A stretch of DNA of 64,000 nt, taken from assembly GCA_902774055.1 (NCBI GenBank), contig CACYGX010000004.1, forward strand, positions 1-64,000, given 5' to 3'. Of this stretch, positions 24,439 to 48,858 are shown one piece after another (position 1 is the stretch's first letter; each line of letters starts with the position of its first letter). The DNA is from an uncultured Bacteroidales bacterium. GTDB taxonomy: Bacteria > Bacteroidota > Bacteroidia > Bacteroidales > Muribaculaceae. A program made the translations under genes and the position numbers. The notes beneath the pieces were generated by a model. It was not told the DNA's origin. It ran no database searches and saw only the letters and a list, made by a program, of their open reading frames with translations.

Positions 24439-25770
24439 TTACTTGCGGTAGGATTTTCGATCCAATTTTCCATTAAAAGTACGGCGGATCGTGTCCACCA
24501 GTTCATAGAGTTGCGGCACCTTGTAGGATTCAAGCCTTGTGGCAATGTGACGTGCCAACTCTCTCGTAGTGAAATCCACATCAGGGCGCTTAACCACCAA
24601 TAGTTTAAGGCGGTTGCCCAACAGCGGCGATGGGTCACAAATGCAGATGCAATCCTCAACCCCATGAAAAGCAAGAGCAGCATCCTCGACCTCGGTGGGT
24701 GCCACTTTATAGCCTCCCACATTAATGACGTCGTCGTCGCGCCCCATCAGCCATAGTCTGCCTTTATCATCAATCCTGCCATTGTCGGCTGTAAAGACAG
24801 TATCGTCGCGCATGACAGTGGCCGTGAGTTCCTCGTCATCGGCATAACCTGACATCAGCGTGTCACCCTGGCAGGCCACATGACCCTCGTCGGTAATAAA
24901 AAAGCGGGAATGGCACATTGCGGTACCCAAGCAGCCCTCCCGGCAGTATCCATCACCAGGTTGGCTATAATCGTGAGTGGCGATGATGCCAGTCTCGGTA
25001 GATGCGTAGGTGTTGTATAGCCTGGTCGATGGCAGCAGGCGGCACAATGCTTCCATATCGCTGTGAGGCATGGGCGCAGCACCAGTCTCAATAAAATCCA
25101 TTCTTGGTGCCATCGCCGCCAGTTGCTTTGACGCCAACTGCAGCAGGATTCTGATGCTAGCCGGAACCAGGAAAGTTGCTACTCGAGCGAAATGCGGATT
25201 GGATAAAGCCTCAAAGAAGGCACCCAAGTCTTTTAATCCCTCCAGGATGTGGAGCGTCGCCCCCATCATGATGACGGGATAGACCTTTGACAGGCTGCCG
25301 ATGTGGTTGATAGGGCCACAAATGACAAACAGCAGGTCACGGGTAACACCCAAAGCATTCACCAGGTTATCGCCATCGGCGACAATGGTTCGGTGGCTGA
25401 CCATGACACCCTTTGAGCGGCCTGTGGTGCCTGTCGTGAACAGAATATCGGCCACCTCGTCGGGAGCGGTAAAGCGGGAATAGCGTTCAACGACTTGATC
25501 CATAGCCGACTGTGGAATATCCTGCTCGAGCGGTAACGCCACAGCATGAATCAGATGGAGTGCAAAATAGGAAACCAGGAAATCGATGGATTGAGCAGCA
25601 CGCATGACAACGACCTGGCCAGGACGGTATCTCCCGGCCAACTCGGTGGCACGGCGCTCAACCCGTTGCCATAAAGCGCGATAGGTCACCTGCTCATCAT
25701 TGCAAATGATGGCGACCTTGTCGGGGTACAACTCGGCGTCACGTCTCAGGTATTCCTCGATGCTGTTCAT
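24439..25770 (-). CDS. AMP-dependent acyl/aryl-ACP ligase of the pigment cluster
   Basis: 443 residues, compact for an ANL adenylating enzyme (usually ~500). The phosphate-binding loop is FTTGTTGRSKG (~111-121), followed by YASTETG (A5), LWLMGRDDDVINVGGYKV (A7/A8) and the C-terminal catalytic lysine in TFNGKLDRK (~K435). It should activate a carboxylic acid as acyl-AMP and load it on an ACP. The gene overlaps the ACP gene at 25767 by four bases (ATGA), so that ACP is the likely partner. In aryl polyene clusters the equivalent ligase loads the aromatic starter; here the acid is unknown. Confidence 0.88.
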   Translation of the reverse strand: MNSIEEYLRRDAELYPDKVAIICNDEQVTYRALWQRVERRATELAGRYRPGQVVVMRAAQSIDFLVSYFALHLIHAVALPLEQDIPQSAMDQVVERYSRFTAPDEVADILFTTGTTGRSKGVMVSHRTIVADGDNLVNALGVTRDLLFVICGPINHIGSLSKVYPVIMMGATLHILEGLKDLGAFFEALSNPHFARVATFLVPASIRILLQLASKQLAAMAPRMDFIETGAAPMPHSDMEALCRLLPSTRLYNTYASTETGIIATHDYSQPGDGYCREGCLGTAMCHSRFFITDEGHVACQGDTLMSGYADDEELTATVMRDDTVFTADNGRIDDKGRLWLMGRDDDVINVGGYKVAPTEVEDAALAFHGVEDCICICDPSPLLGNRLKLLVVKRPDVDFTTRELARHIATRLESYKVPQLYELVDTIRRTFNGKLDRKSYRK

Positions 25771-25991
25771 TTCTGCTTCAATTTGGCTTCGACCATCGCA
25801 ACAATGCTATCCAGGTTCTTGAGGTTGCGCGGTGTGGCATCCACAGCCTCCAGTTCGATGCCGAACTCATTGGACAAAACCATCATGATGGTGGTCACAC
25901 CCAAGGAGTCAAGTTCGGCGAACAGGAAATCTGAATCCAAATCAACAAGTGGCAACACGTCCTCCAACAACTGTTTAATCTTCTCTTTCAT
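25767..25991 (-). CDS. Acyl carrier protein (pigment cluster, first)
   Basis: 74 residues. The phosphopantetheine site is the serine of LDSLGVTT (~S29). The sequence is less acidic around helix II than FabAC-type ACPs. It is coupled by a 4-base overlap to the AMP ligase downstream and lies 13 bases after the MMPL stop in the opposite sense of order (MMPL is transcribed first). It is probably the carrier for the starter acid. Confidence 0.85.
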   Translation of the reverse strand: MKEKIKQLLEDVLPLVDLDSDFLFAELDSLGVTTIMMVLSNEFGIELEAVDATPRNLKNLDSIVAMVEAKLKQK

Positions 25992-26004
25992 ATTGTTTAT
26001 AATA

Positions 26005-28935
26005 TTATTTTCCTATTACTACAGGGTTTAAACGCTTATACTTCTCTATATCTTCTTGACTAGGCTCAATCAGATAGACACATGCACCCGGATGAGCAAC
26101 CATGAAATGTTCCAGCGATGTAGATGCTTCGTCCAAGACCTCGGCGCTTGCTAGCGGATTGTGTATCTCCAGGCGGCGCGCCATGACGGTGACCTTGTCA
26201 GGATCCTCATCGAGGGCGAGCAGTTCCATATCAGGCTTGACTAGCGAGAGCAACAGGGGCAACTCGCCCCAGCCGGCATGAATAACTACAGCAGCGTCTG
26301 CATCCTGACTGTTTTCCAGCCATTGCGCATATCCACCATAGCGGTTCATGCGTTTCTTGACCGCAGAGTAGATTTCTATACCGCAGTACTTGTAATTGTC
26401 CAAAACCAGACGGCAACGGCCCTTAAAACTGCTACTCTTATCACCAGTACTCAACAAAGAGCGCAAGGTGATGGGGCGCTTGCGATTCACGCCGTCGTGA
26501 GTTGTCAGCCACTTGAAAATCAAGGGAGGGAACAAGTAAGCCATCAGCACCACCGAGAACATGCCCACGATGGTCACTTGGGCCAACGAATGCAGAGCAG
26601 GGTGCTTAGCAAATATCAGGGTACCAATACCAATGAACATGATGAGCGCCGAGATAATGATGCTGCTCTTGTAGGATGCCAACATCTTGCGCCCATGGGC
26701 ATATTCGTACTGGCAACCCTCGGTCATGAAGATGGTGTAATCATCACCTTGACCGAAAATGAAAGTCGCAAGTATCACATTGACCACGTTAAAATGAATG
26801 CCCAATAGCGCCATAATGCCTAGGATCCACACCCAGCTCACCGCCATCGGCAGGAACGACAACATGGCCAATTCCAGACTTCCCAGCGAGAACCACAGGA
26901 AGAGGAACACTATGAGCGCACACGCCCAACCGATGTAGTTAAAGTCATCGGATAGGTTGGTGGCAATCGAGGAGTTCATGCTCGCCACATCAAATGCCAA
27001 CACGTCTGGGCAATCCTTTTCCAGTTGAGCCTCGACCTGCTTCAAGCGATCGGATGGCACGGCGACCTCTCGGATGACATGATAGCGCCGCTCAGTGCTA
27101 TCCATAACCATGCGCGAGGCTAGGGCGGTAGAAATCAGCGGATTGAAATAGGAAAGAGGCTGCTCGGCAAACGGCGTGTGCAGCAATTGGTAAAATCCGT
27201 CGAACGAAGTTGGGGCAAAGCCTAGCGACGCACCAGCCGCCCTGACGCTCTGCTCGATGCGGCCAGCGTGCTTAGAGACGAAGTCATTCCATCGCTCCAA
27301 TCGCTGCCGCTGCTGCGGTCCAGTAGCGAGAAAGAGTTCAACGGGGTCATTATTGTTCATTTCGCCTTGCAGTTCAAGACGTTTCAATGCAGGAGAAAGG
27401 GCGGCATTTTGGCTTACGGCACCCTCGAGCGTGGAATCGGACGAGACGATATAAATCGTCTGTTCTTCATCGCTTGCCTGGGAGGCTACACTCTGGAAAT
27501 AAGCCATATCCTGGTGTTGCTCAGGTGTCATGTAATTGATGTGGCTCATGTTAGCATCAAAAGTGGTCTTCATGCTAAAGAAGCCCAATATCAGCGTCAA
27601 CAATGCCACTATAGCAACAACCCAGCGCTGATTCTCAATCGAGAAATCGCTAATGCGATCCCACAAAGAATGCCGGGGGGGAACATGAGAGGCCCGAACC
27701 ATGTGGGGCAGCCATATCAACACAAAAACAATCGTACCAATGAGCAACAATGCCGCAAACGTGCCCAGGTCGCGCAGAGCGACCGAGCGCAGCGGCACAA
27801 GCGCCAGAAAGGCACCCACAGTGGTCACATTTCCGACAACCAGCGGCATGACAATCTCCTTGAGGGCATTCTTCATGTCGGGCGTGTGACGCAGGTGGGC
27901 GATCAGATGCAAGGGGTAATTAACCGCAATACCAAGAATAACCGACGATATGCCGATGACAATCACCGATACATTATCGTGGAAGACGGCTAGCATGCCC
28001 ATGGCAAAAAGCCATCCCCAAGCAATGGAGAGCACAATCAGCAACAGATTGCGCACATCGCGGAAGACCCACAACAACAGTCCCACAATCAAGACGATAG
28101 CCAACATAACGGACAGGAGGCTGTCACGCTTGATTTGGCTGGCATTCTCGACCGCGATGACGGGGCCGCCAATGAAGCGGACATCGATTTGCCCATGAGC
28201 CGCCATCGTCTTGTCGGCCGCCTGGCTGAGCAATTGCAGCAGGCGCGCATTATTCTCGGTCTCGCTGGAGCCATAGGGCGAACGCATCATGGCGAACGCA
28301 TATTGCCTGTCGGGCGAAAAAATGTACCCGTCATAAAGTTCATAATTCACATCGGGCTGTGAATGCTGGAGACGTGAAACGGCTGGAGTGAAAAGATTGA
28401 GGGGGTCTTTACTGAAATTCTCTGAAAACAAACCGGATACAGGTAGCATCAACAACTGCTTGTCGGCCACCAACTGATTGGTAACATAGTCATCGCTGGC
28501 TAACAGACTATCCATGCGGGCGTAATCTGCCTCGGTGAGGAAGTACGGAATGTTGGCATATACAAAATTGGCGACTCCTGACAGTTGTTCAGCATCGATT
28601 TGTGTTGTCAAATCTTGGCATAGCCCCGCAGAATCCATCGCTTCCAGGCACTGCTGAAAATCGGCTATCGTCACTGTCATCGAGTCAGGATCGGCCATCG
28701 TCGAATCCCTGAACTGGAACAAGACAATAATGCGGTCGGCACCTGAGAAATCCTGATAGACATCCAGCGCCTGTCGGTACTTGCTGTCCAGTGGCAAAAA
28801 ATCAGAGATGTCCTCCTTGTAAGTTTGTCCAAGGACTAACCCCGCTAGACACAAGGTGAGTAGCGACAACGAGAGCCAACGCAGCAATCGATGCCGTTTC
28901 AAGAACTCGAATATGTCAACTATCAGCGAGGTCAT
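26005..28935 (-). CDS. MMPL/RND-type exporter with C-terminal methyltransferase-like domain
   Basis: 976 residues. Residues ~1-830 form a double MMPL/RND unit: TM1 at ~18-36, a periplasmic loop, a five-helix bundle (~250-420), a second loop, and a second bundle with IFGQGDDYTIFMTEG. MMPL proteins of aryl polyene clusters move the lipid to the outer leaflet or outer membrane. The last ~140 residues are soluble: YKYCGIEIYSAVKKRM, then AVVIHAGWGELPLLLSLV and ELLALDEDPDKV, which look like motifs I and II of a Rossmann SAM-methyltransferase, although the glycine motif is loose. It may be degenerate. The fusion is the odd feature of this gene. Confidence 0.85.
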   Translation of the reverse strand: MTSLIVDIFEFLKRHRLLRWLSLSLLTLCLAGLVLGQTYKEDISDFLPLDSKYRQALDVYQDFSGADRIIVLFQFRDSTMADPDSMTVTIADFQQCLEAMDSAGLCQDLTTQIDAEQLSGVANFVYANIPYFLTEADYARMDSLLASDDYVTNQLVADKQLLMLPVSGLFSENFSKDPLNLFTPAVSRLQHSQPDVNYELYDGYIFSPDRQYAFAMMRSPYGSSETENNARLLQLLSQAADKTMAAHGQIDVRFIGGPVIAVENASQIKRDSLLSVMLAIVLIVGLLLWVFRDVRNLLLIVLSIAWGWLFAMGMLAVFHDNVSVIVIGISSVILGIAVNYPLHLIAHLRHTPDMKNALKEIVMPLVVGNVTTVGAFLALVPLRSVALRDLGTFAALLLIGTIVFVLIWLPHMVRASHVPPRHSLWDRISDFSIENQRWVVAIVALLTLILGFFSMKTTFDANMSHINYMTPEQHQDMAYFQSVASQASDEEQTIYIVSSDSTLEGAVSQNAALSPALKRLELQGEMNNNDPVELFLATGPQQRQRLERWNDFVSKHAGRIEQSVRAAGASLGFAPTSFDGFYQLLHTPFAEQPLSYFNPLISTALASRMVMDSTERRYHVIREVAVPSDRLKQVEAQLEKDCPDVLAFDVASMNSSIATNLSDDFNYIGWACALIVFLFLWFSLGSLELAMLSFLPMAVSWVWILGIMALLGIHFNVVNVILATFIFGQGDDYTIFMTEGCQYEYAHGRKMLASYKSSIIISALIMFIGIGTLIFAKHPALHSLAQVTIVGMFSVVLMAYLFPPLIFKWLTTHDGVNRKRPITLRSLLSTGDKSSSFKGRCRLVLDNYKYCGIEIYSAVKKRMNRYGGYAQWLENSQDADAAVVIHAGWGELPLLLSLVKPDMELLALDEDPDKVTVMARRLEIHNPLASAEVLDEASTSLEHFMVAHPGACVYLIEPSQEDIEKYKRLNPVVIGK

Positions 28936-28949
28936 TTAGCACGATATTC

Positions 28950-30080
28950 TTATATTCTGCTCCTGTTCTCTACAGGATTGGCATAGATGCCCAGGAATAT
29001 CTCTTTCAGGCGCTCTAAGTCGAATGAATCATAACGGTCCAATTTCTCCAATCGGGCAGTGAAGGCATCAAACTCTTCCTGGGTGTACATCTTCTGGTAA
29101 CGCCTGTTGCCATAGAGCAGATCGTGGGCTATATAATTATTGGGATACAGGCGGTAGGCCGTATTGATGCGACGATCTATCAGTTGGGCAACAGCCTTGT
29201 GGTACTCCACATTGGTCTGCCCTTCCAAAGCCATCAGTTCGGGCACCGACAAGGGCTCACACAGGGCCATGTGTACCCTACCCTTAGTCTGAGTAATGCC
29301 CGTGAGGATGCTGTTCAAGTCCTCGCCCGGCTTTTTGACATAGCGCATGAACTGCGACTGGTAGAGTTCCAACCCCTTGAGCACATCACAGGGCTCCCAC
29401 TCGTAGGAGATAGAGATGGGCACAATGTGCAGGTCGGCAATCGCTGCGATCTTGTCACGAGGCTCACTCAGGCAGAACATCTTAATGATTCCCTGATCGG
29501 TGGCATCAATACCGTCCTTGGTGCGGCCATTGCGTTGTGCAATCCACACCGACTGGTGCTTGTCGGTAATCACATGACGAATGTACTCGGACAAATGCAA
29601 GGAACTGCGATAGAAATCACGAATGCTGCCATCTGGCCGTTCGACACGGAACATCTTATTGGATTTGCCGACATCCACGACAACAGGATGGGTCATCAAG
29701 TTGGCACCGAAGGTTATCTCGGTCGTCTCAAAGCCCTTACTCACCAGGAAATATTGCAACAGGCTGGCGTCCAGCATGATGTCGCGATGGTTAGACACAA
29801 ACAAGTAGGACTCATTAGGGCTAAGGCGTTCAATACCCGAGCATGTGAAGCCATCGGTCGAGCGCAGAATGACCTGCTCATTGACCTTGTACATCGTGTC
29901 ATGCTGGAACTCGCGGGTAGTCTGGAACGACTCTACGCGCTTCCTCACGCTCTCCAACGGTTCGTCGGGATAAACAAATGACGCCAATAACGGGAAAACG
30001 TCACTGTGTGCAATGCGCTTCATCGCAGCTGGTATTTCCTCGTCATAATACGGCCGGATATCATCAAATTTGTTCTCCAT
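28950..30080 (-). CDS. PlsC-like 1-acylglycerol-3-phosphate acyltransferase
   Basis: 376 residues. It resembles a Bacteroidetes subgroup of the LPLAT superfamily: LFVSNHRDIMLDASLL (~93-108), where the catalytic His-Asp spacing is one longer than the classical HX4D, then IAQRNGRTKDG (~200) in place of the EGTR motif. No signal peptide and few hydrophobic stretches. It lies 14 bases before the MMPL gene and 6 bases after the esterase. I infer that it attaches the polyene acyl chain to a glycerolipid head. Confidence 0.8.
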   Translation of the reverse strand: MENKFDDIRPYYDEEIPAAMKRIAHSDVFPLLASFVYPDEPLESVRKRVESFQTTREFQHDTMYKVNEQVILRSTDGFTCSGIERLSPNESYLFVSNHRDIMLDASLLQYFLVSKGFETTEITFGANLMTHPVVVDVGKSNKMFRVERPDGSIRDFYRSSLHLSEYIRHVITDKHQSVWIAQRNGRTKDGIDATDQGIIKMFCLSEPRDKIAAIADLHIVPISISYEWEPCDVLKGLELYQSQFMRYVKKPGEDLNSILTGITQTKGRVHMALCEPLSVPELMALEGQTNVEYHKAVAQLIDRRINTAYRLYPNNYIAHDLLYGNRRYQKMYTQEEFDAFTARLEKLDRYDSFDLERLKEIFLGIYANPVENRSRI

Positions 30081-30086
30081 ATCTAT

Positions 30087-30932
30087 TCAATATATTGTTG
30101 TGATCCATTCTAGAAATTTCTCTTTCCACTGGCGGCACTCAGCGGTTCCTTTAGTATCGCTGGCGCCAAATCCATGTCCACCAGTGCGGTATTGCAAATA
30201 GACGTGTTTGACCCCCTGAGCCGTGAGCGCCGAGTCGAGCAAAACCGAATTGCGGTAATCCACAATGGGGTCATCCACACAGTTGACAAGGAACACTGGG
30301 GGGCAATCGGTCGGCACATGAAGTTCCAGCGAGAGCGTGTCGCGCAATGCCGCGTCACGAGTCTTGGAGTCACCCAATAGGCCACGGCGCGAGCGCTTGT
30401 GCACACTCTCGTGTGTCATTGTAACCACAGGATATATGGGCGCGACAAAAGCGGGACGCTCGTCCTGAGGGAACAATTCGGCTGCCGACATTACCAAATG
30501 CCCACCCGCCGAGAATCCCATCGCCCCGATGCGGGTCGGGTCAATGCCAAACTTGCCTGCATGGCTACGGACATACCGCAAAGCCTGCAACAAGTCGTCT
30601 TGAGGGTCTGGATATCGGTGGCCGCGCCACAGCAAGCGGTAATGTGAAACAAAAGCCCACACCCCACCAGCTCGATATTTTAAGACAAAGGCCGTGATAC
30701 CATTCTGCTGCAACCAACGCGCCACGTCATGCCCCTCGACATTGATGTCATGCCAAAAATAACTGCCGCCGGGACATACGATTACCGATACAGGCTTGAC
30801 ATCGCCTGTAGCGATATAAGGAGTCAACTCGACACGCTCATGACCGGGCGTTTCCTCCCAAATGTTGACAGCAGCCAATGCACTAACGGCTATCAGGACA
30901 GATATCAATATGAGCGTTAGTCTTCTTGGCAT
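30087..30932 (-). CDS. Secreted alpha/beta hydrolase (esterase)
   Basis: 281 residues. A signal peptide (LTLILISVLIAVSALAA) precedes an acetyl-xylan-esterase/BD-FAE-like hydrolase. It has an oxyanion-type VIVCPGGSYFWHD, nucleophile elbow GFSAGGH (~S144), acid in CVDDPIVDY and histidine in TGGHGFG. The start overlaps the upstream oxidoreductase gene by 16 bases, so it belongs to the operon. Its role is not established; it may remove or move an acyl group on the exported lipid in the periplasm. Confidence 0.82.
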   Translation of the reverse strand: MPRRLTLILISVLIAVSALAAVNIWEETPGHERVELTPYIATGDVKPVSVIVCPGGSYFWHDINVEGHDVARWLQQNGITAFVLKYRAGGVWAFVSHYRLLWRGHRYPDPQDDLLQALRYVRSHAGKFGIDPTRIGAMGFSAGGHLVMSAAELFPQDERPAFVAPIYPVVTMTHESVHKRSRRGLLGDSKTRDAALRDTLSLELHVPTDCPPVFLVNCVDDPIVDYRNSVLLDSALTAQGVKHVYLQYRTGGHGFGASDTKGTAECRQWKEKFLEWITTIY

Positions 30933-32434
30933 GAGTTGATCTTGTTAATCACATAATTGGGTTCCAAGAGCGCTTCGCTAGTGAGAATGGCCGTCAAGGG
31001 CACCCCACAGAATCCATGCAGGTTCACGTTCTGTCCTGTGAGAAATAGATTCTTCACCTTGGTCGCGACGGGCACTTGAGACAAAGCCATCTGGTTACAA
31101 TCCTTACTGAAACCGCTGATGCTGCCCCCCTTGACCCCGTAGAAGTCCCGAATGGTTAACGGCGACGAGGCAAGCATGCGATCAACACAGTTGCTAAAGC
31201 CAGGATGCATCTCCTCGATGGCATGAAGCAGTTCCTGGGAACGTTCTTCCTTCCAGCGCTCATAGTCGTCGCCACGATGTCCCACGGTGGTGTCTTCCCA
31301 CTGCCTTACCTTGTCAAACGACATGGGAGCCGTCAAGAGCACTCTGGAAGCATATTCGCCCTGATTGGCATCGGGTGGCGTCATGAACAGGAAGCCCAGG
31401 GGCCAAGGCTTGTCAGGGTTATCAAACTTCCAAATATCCTCATATCGACCCATATAATACTCCGAATGGTTGATATAGGGGAACGTACCAGGTTTGAGCT
31501 TAATATAGAGTGAAAAAGCCGAGAATGCGTTGGGTATCGAATCCAGACGGTTACGATAAGACTTAGGCAAGGCTTTCTCATCCATCAAGCGCAGCATGGT
31601 GCACGGATGTATGGAACTAATATAATAATCGGCTGTAAATTGCTTGCCGCTACGCGTCCTCACATAGTCAACATGATGGTCATTTACCTCAATCCACGAC
31701 ACACCGTCGCCAACGATAACACTGCCACCACGAGAAGTGATGACATCTGCCAGCAAATCGGCAAAGTGGCTGCTGCCATCTACAAAACGGCTCGTGCCGT
31801 TAATATACAGCACACTGATAATCGCGTGAATATAGGCTGGAGTGCACCCCTCGCGCCCACCGTATAGGGGATTCATATAGGAAAGAACACTGCGCAGGCG
31901 TTCATCCTGAATGAACTTAGCAATGTACTCATTGGCCGCCATCAGGAAATCAGGGTCCTGAGAAAAGAGCGACAAATAGCCCTGCGAAGGACGCAAGTTA
32001 AAGACGTCGACATGGCTGGTCATTGTGAAGATGGCATCGACATAGTTTTTCAGGTTCTCGCTCTCCTGTGGGAAATAGGCCGACAAGGAGTCCACAAACC
32101 CTTGCCTGCCACGAGCGATATTGTAATATTGCTTGTCCTGAGCAAAATAGAGCCTGTCGGAACACGACTCATCAACATCCATCAGTTGAACCTTGTCCAG
32201 AATGCCCAGGTAGCGACAAATCTTCCAGATATTGGCGCCAGGTTGCATGCCACCAATCACATGCATACCCGTGTCGAAACGTTCTCCAAACCGTGTAAAA
32301 GTTTGCAGACCGCCACCGATGTTGGCATTCTTCTCCAATACGGTCACGTGGAAGCCCTCCTTAGCCAGAATGGCTCCAGTGAAAAGGCCTCCAAGGCCTG
32401 CACCAATGATTACTACTGAGGGCTGCTGTTTCAT
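30917..32434 (-). CDS. CrtI/retinol-saturase-like FAD oxidoreductase, copy 1
   Basis: 505 residues. The N-terminal dinucleotide fold is VVIIGAGLGGLFTGAILAKEG, then LEKNANIGGGLQTF. The C-terminal FAD motif is LTGQNVNLHGFCGVP. The best family match by motif is phytoene desaturase/all-trans-retinol 13,14-reductase. ATG 32434 is chosen over TTG 32440; the gap to the upstream paralog stop is two bases. It is a paralog of 32437-33933 with the same layout. It is likely to alter the oxidation state of the conjugated chain, which I infer from family and context. Confidence 0.85.
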   Translation of the reverse strand: MKQQPSVVIIGAGLGGLFTGAILAKEGFHVTVLEKNANIGGGLQTFTRFGERFDTGMHVIGGMQPGANIWKICRYLGILDKVQLMDVDESCSDRLYFAQDKQYYNIARGRQGFVDSLSAYFPQESENLKNYVDAIFTMTSHVDVFNLRPSQGYLSLFSQDPDFLMAANEYIAKFIQDERLRSVLSYMNPLYGGREGCTPAYIHAIISVLYINGTSRFVDGSSHFADLLADVITSRGGSVIVGDGVSWIEVNDHHVDYVRTRSGKQFTADYYISSIHPCTMLRLMDEKALPKSYRNRLDSIPNAFSAFSLYIKLKPGTFPYINHSEYYMGRYEDIWKFDNPDKPWPLGFLFMTPPDANQGEYASRVLLTAPMSFDKVRQWEDTTVGHRGDDYERWKEERSQELLHAIEEMHPGFSNCVDRMLASSPLTIRDFYGVKGGSISGFSKDCNQMALSQVPVATKVKNLFLTGQNVNLHGFCGVPLTAILTSEALLEPNYVINKINSCQED

Positions 32435-32436
32435 TG

Positions 32437-42293: not shown

Positions 42294-42752
42294 TTAATCT
42301 TCACTCTTAACGGCAATCTTAATCTCGGTGCTCGCCAATTCGGTACCATTACAGGTGACTATGGCGCTTGCCAAGGTCATACCGAAGACTTCTTCCTGAA
42401 CCTCGACAACAGTGGTTATCTTGTCACCCACACGGGGCAATGACGTGACTTCCATGTTGCGAACGGCGCCGATAAACCCAATCTGTATGCCTTTCTTCAA
42501 GATGAACTTATTCACATAGCCAATGCGCGCGGCACAGGTCTGTGCGATGTTTTCCATCAAGCCCTCGGCAGTGAAGCGCCCTTGCTCCACAAAGAGGTTG
42601 CCGGGCATCACCTCCAACTCGGTTATCGTCTTTCGTTCATCAAAGCCCACAAGGCTGGAAACCATCACAAACGGCTCCTGCTGCGGCAAGAGCTCGTGAA
42701 TGTCAAGGGCTCTGAGTTCCTTCTCGTTAGGGTGTAAGGAATCTGCTATCAT
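42294..42752 (-). CDS. FabZ-like dehydratase with altered active site
   Basis: 152 residues from ATG 42752 (4-base ATGA overlap with the acyltransferase; TTG 42761 rejected). The hotdog fold is ELLPQQEPFVMVSSLVGFD, then EGLMENIAQTCA (E67 at the catalytic-acid position). In FabZ the first motif is LPHRYPF; here the catalytic His is Gln (Q24). It is therefore either a specialised dehydratase, as in other Bacteroidetes clusters with LPQ, or a non-catalytic partner of the hotdog protein at 35424. Confidence 0.8.
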   Translation of the reverse strand: MIADSLHPNEKELRALDIHELLPQQEPFVMVSSLVGFDERKTITELEVMPGNLFVEQGRFTAEGLMENIAQTCAARIGYVNKFILKKGIQIGFIGAVRNMEVTSLPRVGDKITTVVEVQEEVFGMTLASAIVTCNGTELASTEIKIAVKSED

Positions 42753-43630
42753 GATTGCCAAAATTCATAGTAGTTATACCATTGGGCGGGATACATCTTG
42801 AGAATCCTTTCCAACTCGTTGACGAAGGCCGCGGCTAGTTGCCTCTCCTGTTCGCGACGTGGCGCCTGCTTGTCATAGTCGAGCGGCGTCACATAGACTT
42901 TGTAGCCCCTCAACGACGACTTCATGACGTGGACAGTAATCACATTGATGCCTCGGGCAGTAGCGACACTGAAGGGTCCTAGCGGGAAACGGGCCTCCGC
43001 GCCCAGGAAGGGCAAAGAAATGGATTTCTCTGAGCCGAAGAACCGATCGGCCGGCATACTGAGAATTTCGCCATTCTGCAGCACGCGGTTCATCTCGAAC
43101 ACATGACTCATGTCCTGAGTGACAGGAATCATGTGAATGTGATTGTCCACAAACAACTTGTCGCGGTTCTCCATGACAGTGGATTTCTCGCCGAAGTAAA
43201 CCAGGGCATTAAACTGCTTGTCATCGCTCAGCAGGGTGTAACCCGCCAGTTCGTAGTTGCCCACATGGGAACTGAGCTGCAAAAAGGCATCTTCGGCTTG
43301 GGAAAGGCGCTGAAAATGCTCGAATCCCTCCACCTCGATGTTGAACTTCTTGCCCGCATACATGGCGAAGCGGTCTATCACGACCTGCCCAAACAGGCAA
43401 TGGTTAGTGTAAGTCTTCCATGCTGATTTCAGGCGACCAAAGCCATGACGGTGGCGAAAGTAACGATAGGCCGTGACACGGCTGGCGTTGAGCACCAAGC
43501 AGACAGGGACGACAAAGACGGACGCAAAGGCATACAGCAGCCTGATGTCCATCCATCGCAGCACGGCAATAAGCCATCGATGCATCCATCCCGTGCCAAA
43601 GGTCGTTCCAGCCCACGCCCTGTCAGCCAT
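42749..43630 (-). CDS. LpxL/HtrB-like lipid acyltransferase
   Basis: 293 residues with an N-terminal membrane anchor (LLYAFASVFVVPVCLVL). The LpxL/HtrB family motif HX4E is at H122-E127 (LSSHVGNYELAG), followed by the DRFFGSEKSISLPFLG block. It should move an acyl chain from ACP to a lipid on the inner face of the inner membrane. It shares one base with the ACP stop (TGATG), suggesting translational coupling with that ACP. Confidence 0.87.
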   Translation of the reverse strand: MADRAWAGTTFGTGWMHRWLIAVLRWMDIRLLYAFASVFVVPVCLVLNASRVTAYRYFRHRHGFGRLKSAWKTYTNHCLFGQVVIDRFAMYAGKKFNIEVEGFEHFQRLSQAEDAFLQLSSHVGNYELAGYTLLSDDKQFNALVYFGEKSTVMENRDKLFVDNHIHMIPVTQDMSHVFEMNRVLQNGEILSMPADRFFGSEKSISLPFLGAEARFPLGPFSVATARGINVITVHVMKSSLRGYKVYVTPLDYDKQAPRREQERQLAAAFVNELERILKMYPAQWYNYYEFWQS

Positions 43631-43875
43631 CAGTCGTTCACTTTCTTCTCAATATAGTCACAGAACTCGCTCAGCGTGGTAACGCCCACCATATCCTCGG
43701 GCTTGATCTTGAAGCCGAAGTTCTTCTCAACAATCACAACGATATCGACAAAGTCGAGGCTATCGATGCCCATGTCGTCCTTTAACTTGGCGTCGTCAAA
43801 GATCTTGTCCTCGTCAATCTCGAGGTCATCGATCAGGAAAGCTTTTACTTTTTCTTCAATTTCTTGTCTAGACAT
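43630..43875 (-). CDS. Acyl carrier protein (pigment cluster, third)
   Basis: 81 residues. GIDSLDFVDIVVIVEKNFG has the phosphopantetheine serine (~S38); the rest is highly acidic, typical of a type II ACP. It is linked by TGATG to the LpxL-like acyltransferase and lies 29 bases after the O-methyltransferase. Confidence 0.9.
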   Translation of the reverse strand: MSRQEIEEKVKAFLIDDLEIDEDKIFDDAKLKDDMGIDSLDFVDIVVIVEKNFGFKIKPEDMVGVTTLSEFCDYIEKKVND

Positions 43876-43904
43876 AAAAAAATATATTGATTTACAAATG
43901 TTAA

Positions 43905-45008
43905 CTATTTTGGTTTACAAACGAGAATTGAGTGCCCTTGTCCCAGCTGGTCATAGATATGCTCAATCTCAAGTCCAGCGGCATGGATACAATGTTCCAT
44001 GTCCTCGGTGTTATACATCTTGGAGTTGCCGTTGGCCAGCGCCGTGAAATACAGGCTGGTGAGCGTCAAGCACATGGCGGCCGGCTCATAGCGCTGACGA
44101 TCCCACAGGGTCTCCATGATGTAGATGCGGGTCTGGTCGGTCATCACACGGGCTGCACGCTTGAGGATGTCCACGATCTGGTCCATGCTGAAGCAGTCCA
44201 GGAACTGGCTCATCCAGATGGCGTCCAAGCCTCCTTCGCGCTGCGGCAGCATCGCATCGGGGTTCAACAAGTCGATGCCGTGACCGCTGATGCGCTCGGC
44301 ACCCGGTTGCCCCTGTATGTTGTCCATCATCATGCCAATCTGCTGGGGCAGATCGAGCACAGTAACTTGCACCTGAGGGTCATGGGCAACGCATTGCAAC
44401 GCCCATTTGCCGGTATTGCCACCCACATCATAGAGCGACCTGACATGACGTTCGTCAAAGAGGATGCTCAACGCCTGGGGGAAGGAGGAATCGCTATAGA
44501 AGTGATCAAAGTTGAACCAGCTCTTCTTCACCTGCTCGGGCAGCGTGGATAGACCCTCATAGATAGTCGGCCAGTCACCGAAGTGTTTCAGGCCCTCGGG
44601 CTTGCCATTCGACAACGACTCCTCGAGGTGAAACAAGCCCTCGTAGTTCACGTCGTGGTTGAAATCGATGTTCACCCGCGTTGCGGGATCGTTCAAGAGG
44701 AACCAGCCCGTCTTGGACAGGGTAAACTTGTCGGTATCGACATCAACGAGCAGCGTGCCGATGCAGAGCGAAGCCTCCAGCAGGCACTTGACTGCATAGT
44801 CCGATAGACCCGTCTTGTCACAGATCTCTTGTCGTGTTAAGCCGTCGCTGGCATCCCTGATGAGATCCAGGATACCCCATTTAATCATTAAGCGTGAGGC
44901 CTGAAAGACCACAGGCCCCCACGCTATAAATTCAGCCAGCCGCTGCGCCTCGCGGGCGCTAAGCTGCTCTTGTGTATATTTCTTTCTTAATGAAGATGAA
45001 AGTTTCAT
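43905..45008 (-). CDS. SAM-dependent O-methyltransferase
   Basis: 367 residues. It has a winged-helix dimerisation domain (~15-105, WGILDLIRDASDGLTRQEIC) and a PF00891-like catalytic domain with motif I LYDVGGNTGKWAL (~190), VTVLDLPQQ and DAIWMSQFLDCF. The usual catalytic His position in this family is not obvious. In flexirubin and aryl polyene pathways a methyltransferase decorates the aromatic ring or its hydroxyl, so its presence suggests an aromatic head although no starter-making gene is seen. Confidence 0.87.
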   Translation of the reverse strand: MKLSSSLRKKYTQEQLSAREAQRLAEFIAWGPVVFQASRLMIKWGILDLIRDASDGLTRQEICDKTGLSDYAVKCLLEASLCIGTLLVDVDTDKFTLSKTGWFLLNDPATRVNIDFNHDVNYEGLFHLEESLSNGKPEGLKHFGDWPTIYEGLSTLPEQVKKSWFNFDHFYSDSSFPQALSILFDERHVRSLYDVGGNTGKWALQCVAHDPQVQVTVLDLPQQIGMMMDNIQGQPGAERISGHGIDLLNPDAMLPQREGGLDAIWMSQFLDCFSMDQIVDILKRAARVMTDQTRIYIMETLWDRQRYEPAAMCLTLTSLYFTALANGNSKMYNTEDMEHCIHAAGLEIEHIYDQLGQGHSILVCKPK

Positions 45009-45035
45009 CGTTCACATCAAGAGAAAATAGAACTC

Positions 45036-45593
45036 TTACTTTGCTTTAGAAACCAGCTTTGCCATATCCTCTGCCAAGTCCTTGTAAGCGAGCACTCTGC
45101 GCTCCTCATTGCTATAGGCCGACTTGCCAGCACAGTCAAATGCCACCTTGCAGACCACGGTCTTGGTAGCAGTATCAATAATTTCGGCAACGCCCTCAAT
45201 GCTTGCGCCACGAGCCCATCCGCCAAACACGATAGCAGCGCCCGTGCTACCATAGTGGAAATTGTTGACGTGGAAAACCATCTTGTACTGGGCAGCATCT
45301 TCATCGTCGGTGATGAGAGCGTATTTTTTATCCTTCTTGTTGAACTGAGTAGCAAATGCCGATTCACCGGCAGCTACCTCAGCGGGATAGTCGCGTACCC
45401 AATCCGGGCCCTTTTCCTTAAGGAAAGCATCGGGTTTCTGGTCTTCGATCAACATCTTGCTGTAGTCCCACACCACGAGAACACGTACATCACTATTCTT
45501 CAACGAGAGCATGGAGCCGCTCTGGATATCGGCATCGGCCCAGGTTGTAAGAGCGGTCAATAACACAAAAGATAATAAGATTAATTTTTTCAT
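45036..45593 (-). CDS. Secreted protein of unknown function (paralog A)
   Basis: 185 residues with signal peptide (KLILLSFVLLTALTTWA). The mature part starts SGSMLSLKNSDVRVLVVWDY and contains YKMVFHVNNFHYGSTGAAIVF and a C-terminal helix (LAEDMAKLVSKAK). It is similar in layout to the next gene (SGSLRLLKNS..., YKMIVQVKNLQLGPRSGYGG, LAEYLCDLIKHSK), so the two are a diverged tandem pair. No known domain recognised. It is read in the pigment operon just before the methyltransferase. Confidence 0.75.
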   Translation of the reverse strand: MKKLILLSFVLLTALTTWADADIQSGSMLSLKNSDVRVLVVWDYSKMLIEDQKPDAFLKEKGPDWVRDYPAEVAAGESAFATQFNKKDKKYALITDDEDAAQYKMVFHVNNFHYGSTGAAIVFGGWARGASIEGVAEIIDTATKTVVCKVAFDCAGKSAYSNEERRVLAYKDLAEDMAKLVSKAK

Positions 45594-45624
45594 TTTTTTA
45601 ATGATTTAATAGTTTATACAAAAA

Positions 45625-46182
45625 TTATTTGGAGTGTTTAATCAAGTCACAAAGGTATTCGGCCAGGTCGTTAAAGATCTGGATCATACCAGGATAGCCA
45701 GGAAGTGGAATCCTTAACTGGGTGCCTTCGAGTTTCAGGATCTCGACCTCGGCAAACGGGGTGCTCTCGCCCTTCTTGTAGAAGTTGACATAGCCACTGA
45801 TGGATGCACCACCATAGCCGCTCCGGGGACCAAGTTGTAGATTCTTGACCTGAACAATCATCTTGTAAGGAGCATCGGGGTTGGTAGTGTATCTAGGTCC
45901 TTTCTTGATGTCATCATCCCACCTGTCCGAGAACCATTCCTCCATCGTGGGGATTTTGGAATCGAACTCTTCCCTTGAGCTGCCGTAATCGTTCTCAAGA
46001 TACTCGTTAAGAGACTTTTTGTTGGCCTTGGTCTTTGAGAAATCAATCTCGCTATAAATGCTCTCTCCACTATTCTTCAATAGACGCAGGGAGCCCGATT
46101 TCATTCTCAACGGATTGTCGGCAGCGGCAGTCATAGCCACCAGCACAACCATCATGATTCCTATTAAATACCGTTTCATCAT
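45625..46182 (-). CDS. Secreted protein of unknown function (paralog B)
   Basis: 185 residues with signal peptide (MMKRYLIGIMMVVLVAMTAAA). Paralog of the gene at 45036. The middle is more charged (KTKANKKSLNEYLENDYGSS, RWDDDIKKGPRYTTNPDAP). It shares the motif SISGYVNFYKKGESTPFAEVEI with paralog A's SIEGVAEIIDTATKTVVCKV, suggesting a beta-sandwich. Unknown function. Confidence 0.75.
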   Translation of the reverse strand: MMKRYLIGIMMVVLVAMTAAADNPLRMKSGSLRLLKNSGESIYSEIDFSKTKANKKSLNEYLENDYGSSREEFDSKIPTMEEWFSDRWDDDIKKGPRYTTNPDAPYKMIVQVKNLQLGPRSGYGGASISGYVNFYKKGESTPFAEVEILKLEGTQLRIPLPGYPGMIQIFNDLAEYLCDLIKHSK

Positions 46183-46216
46183 ACCTTAAAAATAATAGTT
46201 ATACTTTTATTGAATC

Positions 46217-46843
46217 CTACTCTAAATTCGATCCGCTACTCATTATCATTTCTTGAGCTTGAAATATTAATCCTTCTATCCTTTGTATCTCTTCAATACT
46301 GGTTATAATAAGCCTCCAACCACTAACAGATAAGCCACTGCCTCCTTCACTCTTTGCAGCTTCTCCGGTATAGCACAAAAACAATTGACCTTCATCGTTC
46401 TTCTCGCAAGAGATATTGAAATCATTTCCAGACTCATATCCATAAGTACCATTACCTGTTATCTTATCGATCTCACAACGTTTCAAAAACAAATCAATAT
46501 CGCCATCACCTATTTTTTTGCGATAAAATGATTTTTTTTGTGCCACTTTTTGCGCTTTTGCAAAGTTTTCATATAAAGCATTATAGAATTTATCTGGATG
46601 CCATCTTGATATACTCAAGTAAGTATCAATTTTTGGATCATTACTTTCTACCTGCAAACAGATTTGCCATTTAAATAACTGTTCATCAGGAGTTTTTCCT
46701 TTAAACCTGTTTTCCATATCGTCAATAAGTACGACATAATCCTTGTCAGTAGCTGCTAGATGATAGGTTCCAACTACAACTTGTCCCCAAACTGATGCTT
46801 GAGACAAAAGAAAAAGAGAGATGAATACGAAAAATGTTCTCAT
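46217..46843 (-). CDS. Secreted protein of unknown function, AT-rich
   Basis: 208 residues with signal peptide (TFFVFISLFLLSQASVWG). The mature sequence (GTYHLAATDKDYVVLIDDME, WHPDKFYNALYENFAKAQKV) is not recognised and has no close paralog in the window. It is clearly AT-richer than the neighbouring KS gene and may be a late insertion in the operon. It ends 34 bases before paralog B starts and begins 20 bases after the KS stop. Confidence 0.72.
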   Translation of the reverse strand: MRTFFVFISLFLLSQASVWGQVVVGTYHLAATDKDYVVLIDDMENRFKGKTPDEQLFKWQICLQVESNDPKIDTYLSISRWHPDKFYNALYENFAKAQKVAQKKSFYRKKIGDGDIDLFLKRCEIDKITGNGTYGYESGNDFNISCEKNDEGQLFLCYTGEAAKSEGGSGLSVSGWRLIITSIEEIQRIEGLIFQAQEMIMSSGSNLE

Positions 46844-46863
46844 ACTTCGTAAGTTTTGTATAG

Positions 46864-48084
46864 TTATACTTTCTTGATTACTAATGCCGAATTGGTGCCG
46901 CCGAAACCAAAGCTGTTGCTGAGCACGAGGTTCAATTCGGCCGGAGTGGTTTTTGTCACCAGGTTGAGGTTGGCGCTATGCTCGTCAGGATTCTCAAAAT
47001 TGATGTTTGGAGCCACAAAGTTGTTCTGCATCATGATGATGGAATAGACAATCTCGCTGGCACCAGCCATCCAGCACTCATGGCCCGTCATCGACTTGGT
47101 GCTGCTGATCATGGCCCGCTTGCCGTTGAACAGTCGGTTCAAGGCTATAGCCTCATACATGTCGCCCTGCTGGGTTGACGTGGCGTGGGCGTTGATGTAG
47201 TCAATATCATCAGGGGTGACGCCCGCATCTTGCATGGCGCGGCTCATGGCAATCACACTGCCGTTGTCGCTGGGTTGTGAAATGCCGCCGCCATTGCTCG
47301 AGAAACCATAGCCAACGACCTCGGCAAGGATGGTGGCACCACGGGCGATGGCATGGTCATAGTCTTCAAGCACTAGTGCAGCAGCACCACCGCTGGGAAT
47401 CAGACCATCGCGATCGCGGTCAAACGGACGGCTGGCCTTGGTCGGCTCGTCCATGCGCACCGAGAATGCGCCCAGTGCGTCAAACGAAGCCATCGAGTAG
47501 TAATTGGTCTCTTGGGCACCGCCACACAGCACCATGTCCTGCAGGCCTTGCTTAATCATCATGTAACCCAAGCCAATGGAGTGACTGCCACTCGCACAGG
47601 CGGCACTGATGGTGAAATTAACCCCGCGCAGGTGGAAAATGGTGCTCAGATTCATGTTCACCGTCGAATTCATCGACTGGAAGATGAGGCCGTAGCCCAG
47701 CATGGCCGAGTCATGCTTTTCGTCCATGATTTTTGACGCCTCGATGACGGGCTTGGCCGACGAGTCGTTGCCAAAGATGCAACCCACCTCGTTTTCAAGG
47801 AGGTACTCTTCGCTGATACCAGCCTGTTCAAAGGCTTGGCGACTGGCCATGTAGGCATATCGGGCTTCCTCAGACATGCCGGCACGCGTGTGGCGGTCCA
47901 GCATCTGCTTGGTGATGACTGGTTCCTCAACAATGCCGGACAATCCCGAGCGATAGCCATATTCCAAACGCTCAGGATACAAGCCGATGCCCGACTTACC
48001 CTCAAATAATGACTGCTTGACAGTCTCTATATCTGTTCCCAGGCAGGACCAAATGCCCATACCCGTAATCACAACTCGTCTCAT
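46864..48084 (-). CDS. FabF-like 3-oxoacyl-ACP synthase (stand-alone)
   Basis: 406 residues, normal FabF length. Triad C163 (SAACASGSH), H300 (INAHATSTQQGD) and H335 (MTGHECWMAGA), and C-terminal NSFGFGGTNSALVIKK. No extra domain, in contrast to the two fused KS. It is read 42 bases after fabG. It should do the condensing steps of chain extension, perhaps the first one. Confidence 0.9.
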   Translation of the reverse strand: MRRVVITGMGIWSCLGTDIETVKQSLFEGKSGIGLYPERLEYGYRSGLSGIVEEPVITKQMLDRHTRAGMSEEARYAYMASRQAFEQAGISEEYLLENEVGCIFGNDSSAKPVIEASKIMDEKHDSAMLGYGLIFQSMNSTVNMNLSTIFHLRGVNFTISAACASGSHSIGLGYMMIKQGLQDMVLCGGAQETNYYSMASFDALGAFSVRMDEPTKASRPFDRDRDGLIPSGGAAALVLEDYDHAIARGATILAEVVGYGFSSNGGGISQPSDNGSVIAMSRAMQDAGVTPDDIDYINAHATSTQQGDMYEAIALNRLFNGKRAMISSTKSMTGHECWMAGASEIVYSIIMMQNNFVAPNINFENPDEHSANLNLVTKTTPAELNLVLSNSFGFGGTNSALVIKKV

Positions 48085-48126
48085 TGATTTAATCTAGTGT
48101 TCTCAAAAGGGGCAGTACAATGATCA

Positions 48127-48858
48127 TCATGTGTAAAGTCCTCCGTTTATGTTAATGACTTCGCCGGTGATGTAGGCGGCCTCGTCCGAAGCGAGGAAGG
48201 CCACTAGGGCGGCGACTTCTTCGGGTTTGCCGAAACGTCCCACGGGAACCAGCTGCTTGAGTTCATCTTGGGGCAGGTCTCGGGTCATGTCGGTCTCGAT
48301 GAAGCCTGGAGCGATGGCATTAACTGTCACTTGGCGTGCTCCAACTTCCTGAGCCAGGGCTTTTGTTGCCCCAATCAAGGCAGCCTTCGCAGCACTGTAA
48401 TTCGTCTGTCCTGGCATTCCCTTGACGCCAGACAATGATGCGATATTGATGATGCGACCACCACGCTTGCGCGGCATCATGTGCTTGAGCAGTCGGCGTG
48501 TGGTATAGAAAAAGCCGTTAAGGGTAGTATCCAGTACTTTGTGCCAGTCCTCGTCGGGCATCATAAACATGACGTTGTCACGACGAATGCCGGCATTGTT
48601 GACCAGGACCGAAATATAGTCTTCGGGGTGCGCCTGCTCCCAACTATCAATAGCGGCGTCAATCGCCGTCGGGTCAGACGCATCAAAAGGCAACAATTCA
48701 GCAGAGCCACCGAGACGTGTGACTTCGTTCAACGTCTCGGCAGCAGCAGCTTGATTATTAAGATAATTGATGATAACAGGAATTCCAGATTGTGCAAGCC
48801 TCAAAACGACTGCTCGTCCTATACCTCTGGAAGCACCTGTTACTAAAGCATATTTCAT
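48127..48858 (-). CDS. FabG-like 3-oxoacyl-ACP reductase
   Basis: 243 residues, short-chain dehydrogenase. Cofactor motif TGASRGIG (8-15), NNAG (87-90), catalytic S141/S143 region (NIASLSG), Y154 and K158 (YSAAK). It reduces the keto group during each extension cycle. It follows the outer-membrane protein gene by 14 bases. Its first eight codons have a close echo in the chimeric groEL fragment at 50195. Confidence 0.9.
   Translation of the reverse strand: MKYALVTGASRGIGRAVVLRLAQSGIPVIINYLNNQAAAAETLNEVTRLGGSAELLPFDASDPTAIDAAIDSWEQAHPEDYISVLVNNAGIRRDNVMFMMPDEDWHKVLDTTLNGFFYTTRRLLKHMMPRKRGGRIINIASLSGVKGMPGQTNYSAAKAALIGATKALAQEVGARQVTVNAIAPGFIETDMTRDLPQDELKQLVPVGRFGKPEEVAALVAFLASDEAAYITGEVININGGLYT

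What the first reader, a model, noticed from the sequence alone, without database searches (positions are those of the whole stretch)
24439..48858. Aryl polyene/flexirubin-class cluster without a visible starter-making gene
Sequence: about 25 co-directional minus-strand genes with overlaps include three ketosynthases, ketoreductase, two hotdog proteins, thioesterase, three ACPs, AMP ligase, O-methyltransferase, GT2-acyltransferase fusion, two further acyltransferases, LolA, an SMR-like protein and an MMPL exporter. Established: this gene set (KS/KR/DH/ACP/ligase/GT2-AT/LolA/MMPL) defines aryl polyene and flexirubin pathways. Inference: no tyrosine/histidine ammonia lyase, no DarA/DarB resorcinol genes and no chorismate-lyase-like gene is present, so the starter acid may be made elsewhere or be non-aromatic. 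The methyltransferase argues for an aromatic head. This may be a distinct product class.
Basis: partly seen in the sequence, partly recalled or inferred. Interest (0 to 1): 0.78.

Follow-up and report, generated by a model that had tools for sequence, protein, structure and literature searches.

The report
Pigment gene cluster with swapped starter
This is a flexirubin/aryl-polyene-type pigment gene cluster of a Bacteroidales bacterium with gut relatives, in which the usual two enzymes that make and activate the aromatic starting acid are replaced by a ligase and a carrier protein, so the pigment seems to start from an aromatic acid obtained in some other, still unknown, way.

Summary
The cluster is real: 26 minus-strand ORFs (24439-48858) form an aryl-polyene/flexirubin (flx) type II PKS pathway; its FlxJ-family methyltransferase and flexirubin-type LolA pass curated cut-offs. 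The missing starter gene is confirmed in the genome: the only ammonia lyase is a HutH, and UbiC, chorismatase, FlxY and DarB searches were negative. Relatives explain the gap. Of 55 clusters mapped, 32 carry a FlxA-like lyase and/or FlxY-like ligase; nine, the window included, carry instead a PF00501 ligase (LIG), eight of them with a third carrier protein (ACPa) seen; none has both sets; 14 were undetermined. LIG is in 9 of 198 family genomes, all among the 27 with the cluster. None of 49 LIG genomes searched has FlxA. The LIG type recurs in Prevotellaceae, Bacteroidaceae and Muribaculaceae, with several switches on trees. FlxJ is kept in 49 of 50 LIG genomes searched, so the head is very probably aromatic. 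Best reading: LIG loads a preformed aryl acid onto ACPa, much as ApeH does for aryl polyenes. The acid and its source are not shown; scavenging is the boldest untested reading. A new variant of a known kind, not a new product class.

The parts
24439..25770 (-). LIG: stand-alone adenylate-forming ligase (PF00501 + AMP-binding_C), half of the replacement starter module
   Evidence: Pfam; lysine K435 invariant in 50 of 50 aligned relatives; 22.7% to ApeH, E 2.8e-7
25767..25991 (-). ACPa: 74-aa carrier protein paired with LIG (overlaps it by 4 bases), other half of the module
   Evidence: PF00550; just before LIG in 77 of 80 named loci; best Ape match ApeE, E 0.06 only
26005..28935 (-). MMPL/RND exporter
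   Evidence: PF03176; ApeM homologue E 1.8e-10
28950..30080 (-). Acyltransferase (PF01553)
30087..30932 (-). Alpha/beta hydrolase, esterase-like (BD-FAE/Abhydrolase_3); also in many FlxA-type clusters
30917..32440 (-). FAD oxidoreductase, phytoene-desaturase/CrtD-like (below NCBIfam cut-offs)
32437..34014 (-). FAD oxidoreductase, phytoene-desaturase/carotenoid-isomerase-like (below NCBIfam cut-offs)
33926..35434 (-). GT2-acyltransferase fusion (ApeJ GT2 part plus ApeD-like acyltransferase)
35424..35873 (-). FabA-like hotdog dehydratase
   Evidence: PF07977 below cut-off; weak ApeI similarity E 0.019
35788..36330 (-). Cluster protein of unknown function, recurring in relatives
   Evidence: no Pfam hit
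36239..36862 (-). LolA2, flexirubin type
   Evidence: NF053544 231 bits, cut-off 125
36870..37223 (-). EamA/SMR-like membrane protein
37211..38995 (-). KS fused to a shortened CLF-like domain (ApeO + ApeC in one chain)
   Evidence: Pfam; ApeO 34%, ApeC 28% (E 7e-4)
39031..39288 (-). ACPb, ApeE-like
   Evidence: 49% to ApeE
39318..40115 (-). Protein of unknown function
   Evidence: no hit over cut-off
40102..41826 (-). KS with a C-terminal ~200-aa extension; in many relatives this part is a separate ORF
41853..42278 (-). 4HBT thioesterase (ApeK-like)
42294..42761 (-). FabZ-like hotdog dehydratase
   Evidence: weak FabZ hit below cut-off; no ApeP match by BLASTP
42749..43630 (-). LpxL-type acyltransferase
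   Evidence: PF03279; similar to the C-terminal part of ApeJ
43630..43875 (-). ACPc, ApeF-like
43905..45008 (-). FlxJ-family methyltransferase (predicted aryl head methylation)
   Evidence: NF053543 594.8 bits, cut-off 560; 45% to ApeB
45036..46843 (-). Three small proteins of unknown function (45036-45593, 45625-46182, 46217-46843)
   Evidence: no Pfam hit
46864..48084 (-). KS, ApeR-like
48127..48858 (-). KR, ApeQ-like; in many relatives the FlxA-like gene lies just upstream of it
48873..49550 (-). Outer-membrane-like protein (OMP_b-brl below cut-off), where many relatives have the FlxA-like gene
   Evidence: a similar protein lies between the lyase and KR in G255

Best explanation
A flexirubin-type (flx) aryl polyene cluster whose starter module has been exchanged. 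The standard module is FlxA (tyrosine to 4-coumarate) plus FlxY (4-coumaroyl-CoA). Here it is replaced by LIG plus ACPa: LIG adenylates a preformed aryl carboxylic acid and transfers it to ACPa; a KS-CLF type ketosynthase extends it with malonyl units; KR and dehydratases make the polyene; FlxJ methylates the aromatic head; the acyltransferases, GT2, LolA and MMPL anchor and export it to the outer membrane. Shown here: the gene set, the exchange, the loss of FlxA and FlxY, the co-occurrence. Inferred: that LIG acts on an aryl acid and loads ACPa, the order of steps, and that the acid comes from outside the cluster (a 4-hydroxyaryl acid such as 4-coumarate or 4-hydroxybenzoate, imported or made by an unrecognised enzyme).
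For: Of 55 mapped clusters: 21 with FlxA-like and FlxY-like, 7 FlxA-like only, 4 FlxY-like only, 9 LIG, 0 with LIG and either, 14 undetermined (two of the 14, G209 and G251, proved LIG-positive). Family: LIG in 9 of 198 genomes, all within the 27 with the cluster. Names: one class-A pair (G255) was scanned and passes NF053541 FlxA (811, cut-off 700) and NF053551 FlxY (684, cut-off 520); FlxY model over cut-off in 3 of 3 class-A and 0 of 18 LIG genomes. PF00221 in 49 LIG genomes: 33 none, 16 one each; the 15 that are not the own gene are 57-78% identical to the own HutH and 31-36% to FlxA, with a homologue of the own hutI in the same short locus. At what I take to be the Glu(HAL)/Gln(TAL, PAL) residue named in PMC3992019 (passages) 16 of 16 have Glu and 28 of 28 FlxA-like have Gln. 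FlxJ over cut-off in 49 of 50 LIG genomes searched. ACPa just before LIG in 77 of 80 loci, also where no other core gene lies in the held flank (11 of 80). LIG has Ile157 where the aligned NRPS domains have Asp, against an amino-acid substrate (role of that Asp recalled). Trees: fewest switches 3 (KS) and 7 (GT2).
Against: No substrate is demonstrated. LIG is only 23% identical to ApeH and its best PDB sequence matches are NRPS adenylation domains. No starter source was found, so the aryl acid is deduced mainly from FlxJ; and FlxJ is not universal in FlxA-type clusters (18 of 32 show it in the mapped stretch, 6 show a B12-type radical SAM gene instead). PaaK-family ligases below the FlxY cut-off (best 45-227 bits, cut-off 520) occur in 7 of 18 LIG genomes; in G055 one (28% to the FlxY-like reference) lies about 4.5 kb upstream of the KS gene, so a second ligase near the cluster is not excluded there. 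In G111 no ACPa was seen. Foldseek ranks malonyl, succinylbenzoate and 4-coumarate ligases together and does not choose a substrate. PF00221 was searched for 40 of the 80 named loci only.
Confidence: 0.66

Rival explanations
1. The starter acid is made inside the cell by an unrecognised or general-metabolism enzyme (as UbiC serves E. coli aryl polyenes), so nothing is scavenged. This is compatible with LIG/ACPa loading.
For: The E. coli CFT073 ape cluster has no annotated starter gene and uses 4-hydroxybenzoate from UbiC (PMC8253772, passages).
Against: UbiC 0 of 18 (control rang in E. coli) and chorismatase 0 of 18 over cut-off (no positive control) in LIG genomes; no FlxA in 49. Enzymes of other families were not searched.
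Confidence: 0.4
2. LIG loads a non-aromatic acid (for example a short or branched fatty acid), giving an unusual polyene without an aryl head, as the first reader suggested as one option.
For: NCBIfam best matches are fatty-acyl-CoA ligase models, all far below cut-off; no aromatic-acid source was found; FlxJ is absent from the mapped stretch of some FlxA-type clusters too.
Against: The FlxJ-family methyltransferase, whose E. coli counterpart ApeB probably methylates the head group (PMC8253772), is kept in 49 of 50 LIG genomes searched; the window's copy is 46-74% identical to the 18 FlxA/FlxY-type copies mapped.
Confidence: 0.12
3. LIG-ACPa has another job (for example tailoring of the lipid) and the loss of FlxA/FlxY merely coincides; the cluster may be inactive or primed by other means, e.g. 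by another PaaK-family ligase.
For: The pair can stand away from the cluster (11 of 80 loci show no other core gene in the held flank); sub-cut-off PaaK-family ligases occur in 7 of 18 LIG genomes.
Against: No cluster with LIG and FlxA or FlxY among 55; no LIG in the 171 cluster-less family genomes at E up to 1e-60; repeated exchange on trees.
Confidence: 0.13
4. Ordinary assembly gap: FlxA/FlxY exist but are missing from the draft genome.
For: Own genome is 94% complete in 54 contigs.
Against: The cluster is uninterrupted within one contig of 113,270 bases, and 48 other LIG genomes agree on FlxA.
Confidence: 0.03

Closest known systems
Flexirubin (flx) cluster of Chitinophaga pinensis / Flavobacterium johnsoniae (PMC3992019, passages)
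   Same: Type II PKS core with methyltransferase, LolA, GT2 and exporter as described there; FlxJ and LolA2 models over cut-off. Bacteroidales relatives of the window carry FlxA-like and FlxY-like genes towards the two ends of the same core.
   Different: No FlxA, no FlxY, no DarB found; LIG + ACPa instead; two KS genes have fused second domains. The C. pinensis genes themselves were not fetched.
Aryl polyene (ape) cluster of E. coli CFT073
   Same: BLASTP counterparts of ApeB, C, E, F, J, K, L, M, O, Q, R and of the ApeD acyltransferase; a ligase with ACPs and no annotated starter gene in the cluster.
   Different: LIG is a distant relative of ApeH (23%), ACPa has no clear Ape counterpart, no BLASTP counterpart of ApeA, G, N or P was seen, and UbiC was not found.
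Xanthomonadin/arcuflavin pathways (XanB2-type chorismatase; PMC3949708, seen as listing and start of abstract only)
   Same: AMP ligase and aryl starter acid.
   Different: No FkbO/Hyg5-type chorismatase domain over cut-off in 18 LIG genomes searched.

Membership tests
Flexirubin (flx) cluster | FlxA tyrosine ammonia-lyase | tested here: not met
   Only HutH in the own genome; 0 of 49 LIG genomes have FlxA
Flexirubin (flx) cluster | FlxY 4-coumarate-CoA ligase | tested here: not met
   0 of 18 LIG genomes over cut-off, 3 of 3 class-A controls over it; 7 of the 18 have weaker PaaK-family matches
Flexirubin (flx) cluster | FlxJ-family methyltransferase | tested here: met
   594.8 bits, cut-off 560
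Flexirubin (flx) cluster | Flexirubin-type LolA2 | tested here: met
   231 bits, cut-off 125
Flexirubin (flx) cluster | DarB for the dialkylresorcinol half | tested here: not met
   Own best 36 bits, cut-off 550; 1 of 18 LIG genomes over cut-off
Flexirubin (flx) cluster | DarA for the dialkylresorcinol half | not tested
   no DarA search was run
Aryl polyene (ape) cluster | ApeO-ApeC, ApeR, ApeQ, two ACPs, ApeB, GT2/AT, TE, LolA, MMPL | tested here: met
   BLASTP to E. coli CFT073 proteins
Aryl polyene (ape) cluster | ApeH-type ligase loading 4-hydroxybenzoate on an ACP | tested here: inconclusive
   LIG 22.7% to ApeH, E 2.8e-7; substrate not testable here
Aryl polyene (ape) cluster | UbiC as source of 4-hydroxybenzoate (E. 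coli) | tested here: not met
   0 of 18 LIG genomes
Xanthomonadin-type cluster | XanB2-like chorismatase | tested here: not met
   PF21168 0 of 18 over cut-off, two weak hits of 15-17 bits; no control genome rang. That this model covers XanB2 is recalled.
Any aryl polyene | Aryl-polyene product in the outer membrane | not testable with these tools
   needs extraction and MS

The most novel reading that the evidence does not exclude
Many gut and rumen Bacteroidales prime outer-membrane aryl polyenes with aromatic acids taken from their surroundings (plant hydroxycinnamates or microbial/host aryl acids) through a dedicated LIG-ACPa gate, so that the pigment depends on diet or neighbours; the gate has repeatedly displaced the tyrosine route.
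Probability: 0.3. Interest if true: 0.75.

Novelty: new variant of a known kind. Interest (0 to 1): 0.55.

Why it matters
[quoted passage not shown] In the Bacteroidales clusters seen here the starter module is an exchangeable part: tyrosine lyase plus CoA ligase in one set, ligase plus carrier protein in the other, never both. Either an unrecognised aryl-acid enzyme awaits discovery, or these common gut bacteria build a surface pigment from aromatic acids supplied by diet or neighbours. A LIG/ACPa loading assay with a panel of acids would decide much of this. It also warns that one class label can hide different precursor needs.

Tried and rejected
Feruloyl-esterase lead: an esterase gene (CE1-like by my reading of the letters; no family search was run on it) sits just upstream of ACPa-LIG in 9 of 89 LIG loci (G025, G287, G390, L158, L160, L167, L172, L195, L197), suggesting release of plant hydroxycinnamates; but a homologue follows MMPL in 3 of 32 FlxA/FlxY-type clusters (G310, G334, G378), so it is not tied to the LIG type. 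The cluster's own BD-FAE-like hydrolase is also present in many FlxA-type clusters, so it is not the missing starter source.

Neighbours of the LIG-ACPa pair: for 8 loci (L141, L148, L149, L150, L155, L169, L188, L189) I looked by eye at the ORFs printed up to about 2.5 kb upstream; housekeeping-looking genes (my reading of the letters), no recurring starter-making gene. Amino-acid loading by LIG was considered because NRPS domains are its top PDB sequence hits; judged less likely because Ile157 stands where the aligned domains have Asp (role of that Asp recalled). Structure prediction (mean pLDDT 89.9) and Foldseek did not discriminate the substrate. Literature: brought up no listing that describes the ligase/carrier replacement; only open-access PMC papers are held, five papers were seen as passages, the rest as listings.

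Not done: DarA search, antiSMASH, other aryl-acid enzyme families, PF00221 for the other 40 named LIG loci and for G209 and G251, mapping of 17 of the 46 other order genomes with a KS match.
Full report
Observation. The stretch 24439-48858 holds 26 minus-strand ORFs. Pfam and NCBIfam place them as a type II PKS of the aryl polyene/flexirubin kind. The methyltransferase passes the FlxJ model (594.8 bits, cut-off 560) and LolA the flexirubin LolA2 model (231, cut-off 125). By BLASTP against the E. coli CFT073 ape proteins (DNA; Ape letters follow the table in PMC8253772) there are counterparts of ApeB (45%), ApeE (49%), ApeF (37%), ApeQ (43%), ApeR (35%), ApeO (34%), ApeC (28%), of ApeJ, K, L and M, and of ApeD inside the GT2 fusion. 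The ligase is only 23% identical to ApeH, ACPa has no clear counterpart, and ApeA, G, N and P found none.

Organism. The order is taken to be Bacteroidales from the titles of near relatives. G290, of the window's genus, has a contig of 97,349 bases, the length of the record of locus L137, titled uncultured Bacteroidales bacterium RUG12202; other close LIG hits are titled Muribaculaceae. The habitat of the window's own genome is not known.

Is the starter gene really absent? In the own genome (3.17 Mb, 54 contigs, 94% complete) PF00221 has one match. It is over the HutH cut-off and far below the FlxA cut-off (367 bits against 700); its neighbours look like urocanase and HutI by my reading of the letters. 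UbiC, chorismatase N-domain PF21168 (no positive control rang) and FlxY have no match; the DarB model reaches 36 bits (cut-off 550), probably FabH. DarA was not searched.

Relatives explain the gap. A homologue of the KS gene 37211-38995 (E up to 1e-60) is in 47 of 198 genomes drawn from the order and 27 of 198 from the family. I fetched the surroundings in 54 other genomes (all 26 others of the family draw and 28 further order genomes; 17 other order genomes with a match were not fetched) and mapped genes by BLASTP. With the window that makes 55 clusters: 21 with a FlxA-like lyase and a FlxY-like ligase, 7 with the lyase only, 4 with the FlxY-like ligase only (several stretches are cut by contig ends), 9 with LIG, none with LIG and either of the others, 14 undetermined (FlxY-like means over 45% identity to the G003 protein). 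Two of the 14 (G209, G251) later proved LIG-positive. The lyase mostly lies just upstream of KR and the FlxY-like ligase towards the far end, as flxA and flxY bound the C. pinensis cluster (PMC3992019, passages). One such pair (G255) was scanned against NCBIfam and passes both Flx models; the other lyases rest on BLASTP, position and motif.

Exclusivity. LIG (E up to 1e-60) is in 9 of 198 family genomes, all 9 among the 27 with the cluster, none among the other 171 (the handles shown are those; at most 8 candidates per genome were scored). Of the 27, 9 have LIG, 15 FlxA-like and/or FlxY-like, 3 could not be judged (G282, G303, G307). Genus-mates differ: G290 has LIG, G255 and G368 have FlxA/FlxY. 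PF00221 was searched in 49 LIG genomes (own and 8 unnamed; 40 of the 80 named ones): 33 have none, 16 one each. Apart from the own gene, these are 57-78% identical to the own HutH against 31-36% to FlxA, with a homologue of the own hutI in the locus. At what I take to be the residue that PMC3992019 gives as Glu in HAL and Gln in TAL/PAL, 16 of 16 have Glu and 28 of 28 FlxA-like proteins Gln. The FlxY model is over cut-off in 3 of 3 class-A genomes and 0 of 18 LIG genomes; 7 of the 18 have weaker PaaK-family matches (best 45-227 bits, cut-off 520), in G055 one about 4.5 kb upstream of the KS gene. UbiC 0 of 18, chorismatase 0 of 18 over cut-off, DarB 1 of 18.

Distribution. A scan of GTDB genome contigs with the LIG alignment confirmed 322 stretches at E up to 1e-3 (any related ligase counts) and kept the best 80, at 52-66% identity. 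NCBI families: Prevotellaceae 45, Bacteroidaceae 15, Muribaculaceae 2, Porphyromonadaceae 1, Tannerellaceae 1, none given 16; 56 of 80 titles fit my pattern for ruminant-gut projects. ACPa lies just before LIG in 77 of 80. No lyase or FlxY-like gene (over 60 bits) shows in the held flanks of the 80, though flanks of at most 10 kb often do not reach the KR end. In 11 of 80 no other core gene lies in the held flank (L160 and L207 are short contig ends). The FlxJ model is over cut-off in 49 of 50 LIG genomes searched, including 8 of the 9 of those 11 that were searched (the miss, G437 with L189, is a MAG titled Bacillota).

Evolution. On a KS tree of 63 rows the window and 14 other LIG rows, with G209 and G251, form a set of 17 (SH-aLRT 95); over rows labelled A or B the fewest switches are 3. 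On a GT2 tree of 72 rows the fewest are 7, of which well-supported branches force at least 3. Both are quick trees with midpoint roots, so the direction (FlxA/FlxY ancestral) is likely, not proved.

How it probably works. LIG keeps the adenylation motifs (my reading) and an invariant C-terminal lysine. The model folds well and resembles 4-coumarate, 4-chlorobenzoate, succinylbenzoate and malonyl ligases alike. Ile157, conserved in at least 90% of 50 relatives, stands where aligned NRPS adenylation domains have Asp, which speaks against an amino acid (role recalled). ApeH of Xenorhabdus loads 4-hydroxybenzoate onto an ACP without a CoA ester (as reported in PMC8253772). By analogy LIG loads an aryl acid on ACPa, which feeds the KS. 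Retention of FlxJ, whose E. coli counterpart ApeB probably methylates the aromatic head, is the main reason to expect a hydroxyaryl head. The acid's identity and origin are not shown.

What weakens it. A cluster without a starter gene is normal for the E. coli aryl polyene, so absence alone is not remarkable. FlxJ is seen in 18 of 32 FlxA/FlxY-type clusters only; 6 others show a B12-type radical SAM gene, so FlxJ is a usual but not a universal mark. The plant-esterase idea did not survive its control. The substrate rests on inference.

Literature. Searches listed no account of this replacement in the open-access library. PMC9007364 (passages) reports a high share of aryl polyene clusters in Muribaculaceae genus CAG-486; PMC6469967 (passages) reports them in oral Bacteroidetes; the passages seen do not treat the starter.

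Noticed in passing
49847-50178 and 51387-51718: The last 332 bp of groEL (51388-53028) are repeated, 97.3% identical, between two outer-membrane-like genes just upstream of KR, near the place where relatives carry the FlxA-like gene; the two outer-membrane genes share 205 bp at 70%.
   Followed up: partly
153-12437, 58329-60563 and 63113-63976: Seven proteins carry a type I dockerin domain: five leucine-rich-repeat proteins (four of them with DUF285), one protein with no other hit and one FGE-sulfatase-like protein.
   Followed up: no
37211-38995 and relatives: In most LIG-type clusters with this gene in view the KS and its CLF-like partner are one chain of about 500-630 aa (G111 and L200 are split), while FlxA-type clusters mostly have a KS of about 400 aa and a separate partner of about 250-390 aa, or a fusion of 736-773 aa; this may bear on chain length.
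   Followed up: partly
G287:C1:2786132 and 2871022: One genome carries two LIG genes with the same score about 85 kb apart, perhaps a duplicated cluster or pair.
   Followed up: no
L142, L143, L165, L168: A KS similar to 40102-41826 lies just upstream of ACPa-LIG with no other core gene in the held flank, hinting that this KS takes the ACPa-bound starter.
   Followed up: partly
L189: A MAG titled Bacillota carries a LIG-ACPa region with the same neighbours as the Prevotella MAG locus L193; perhaps a binning error; the only one of 50 genomes without a FlxJ match.
   Followed up: no
L151, L153, L183: Some Prevotella-type LIG loci also carry a DarB gene (NF053539 over cut-off for L151 and L153; L183 by BLASTP only) and DarH-like genes (two in L151 over cut-off) near MMPL, so resorcinol-bearing LIG types seem to exist.
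   Followed up: partly
G106, G097, G178, G195, G140, G093: Six FlxA/FlxY-type clusters have a B12-type radical SAM gene (named from the letters) and no FlxJ in the mapped stretch, perhaps a second exchangeable part of these clusters.
   Followed up: no
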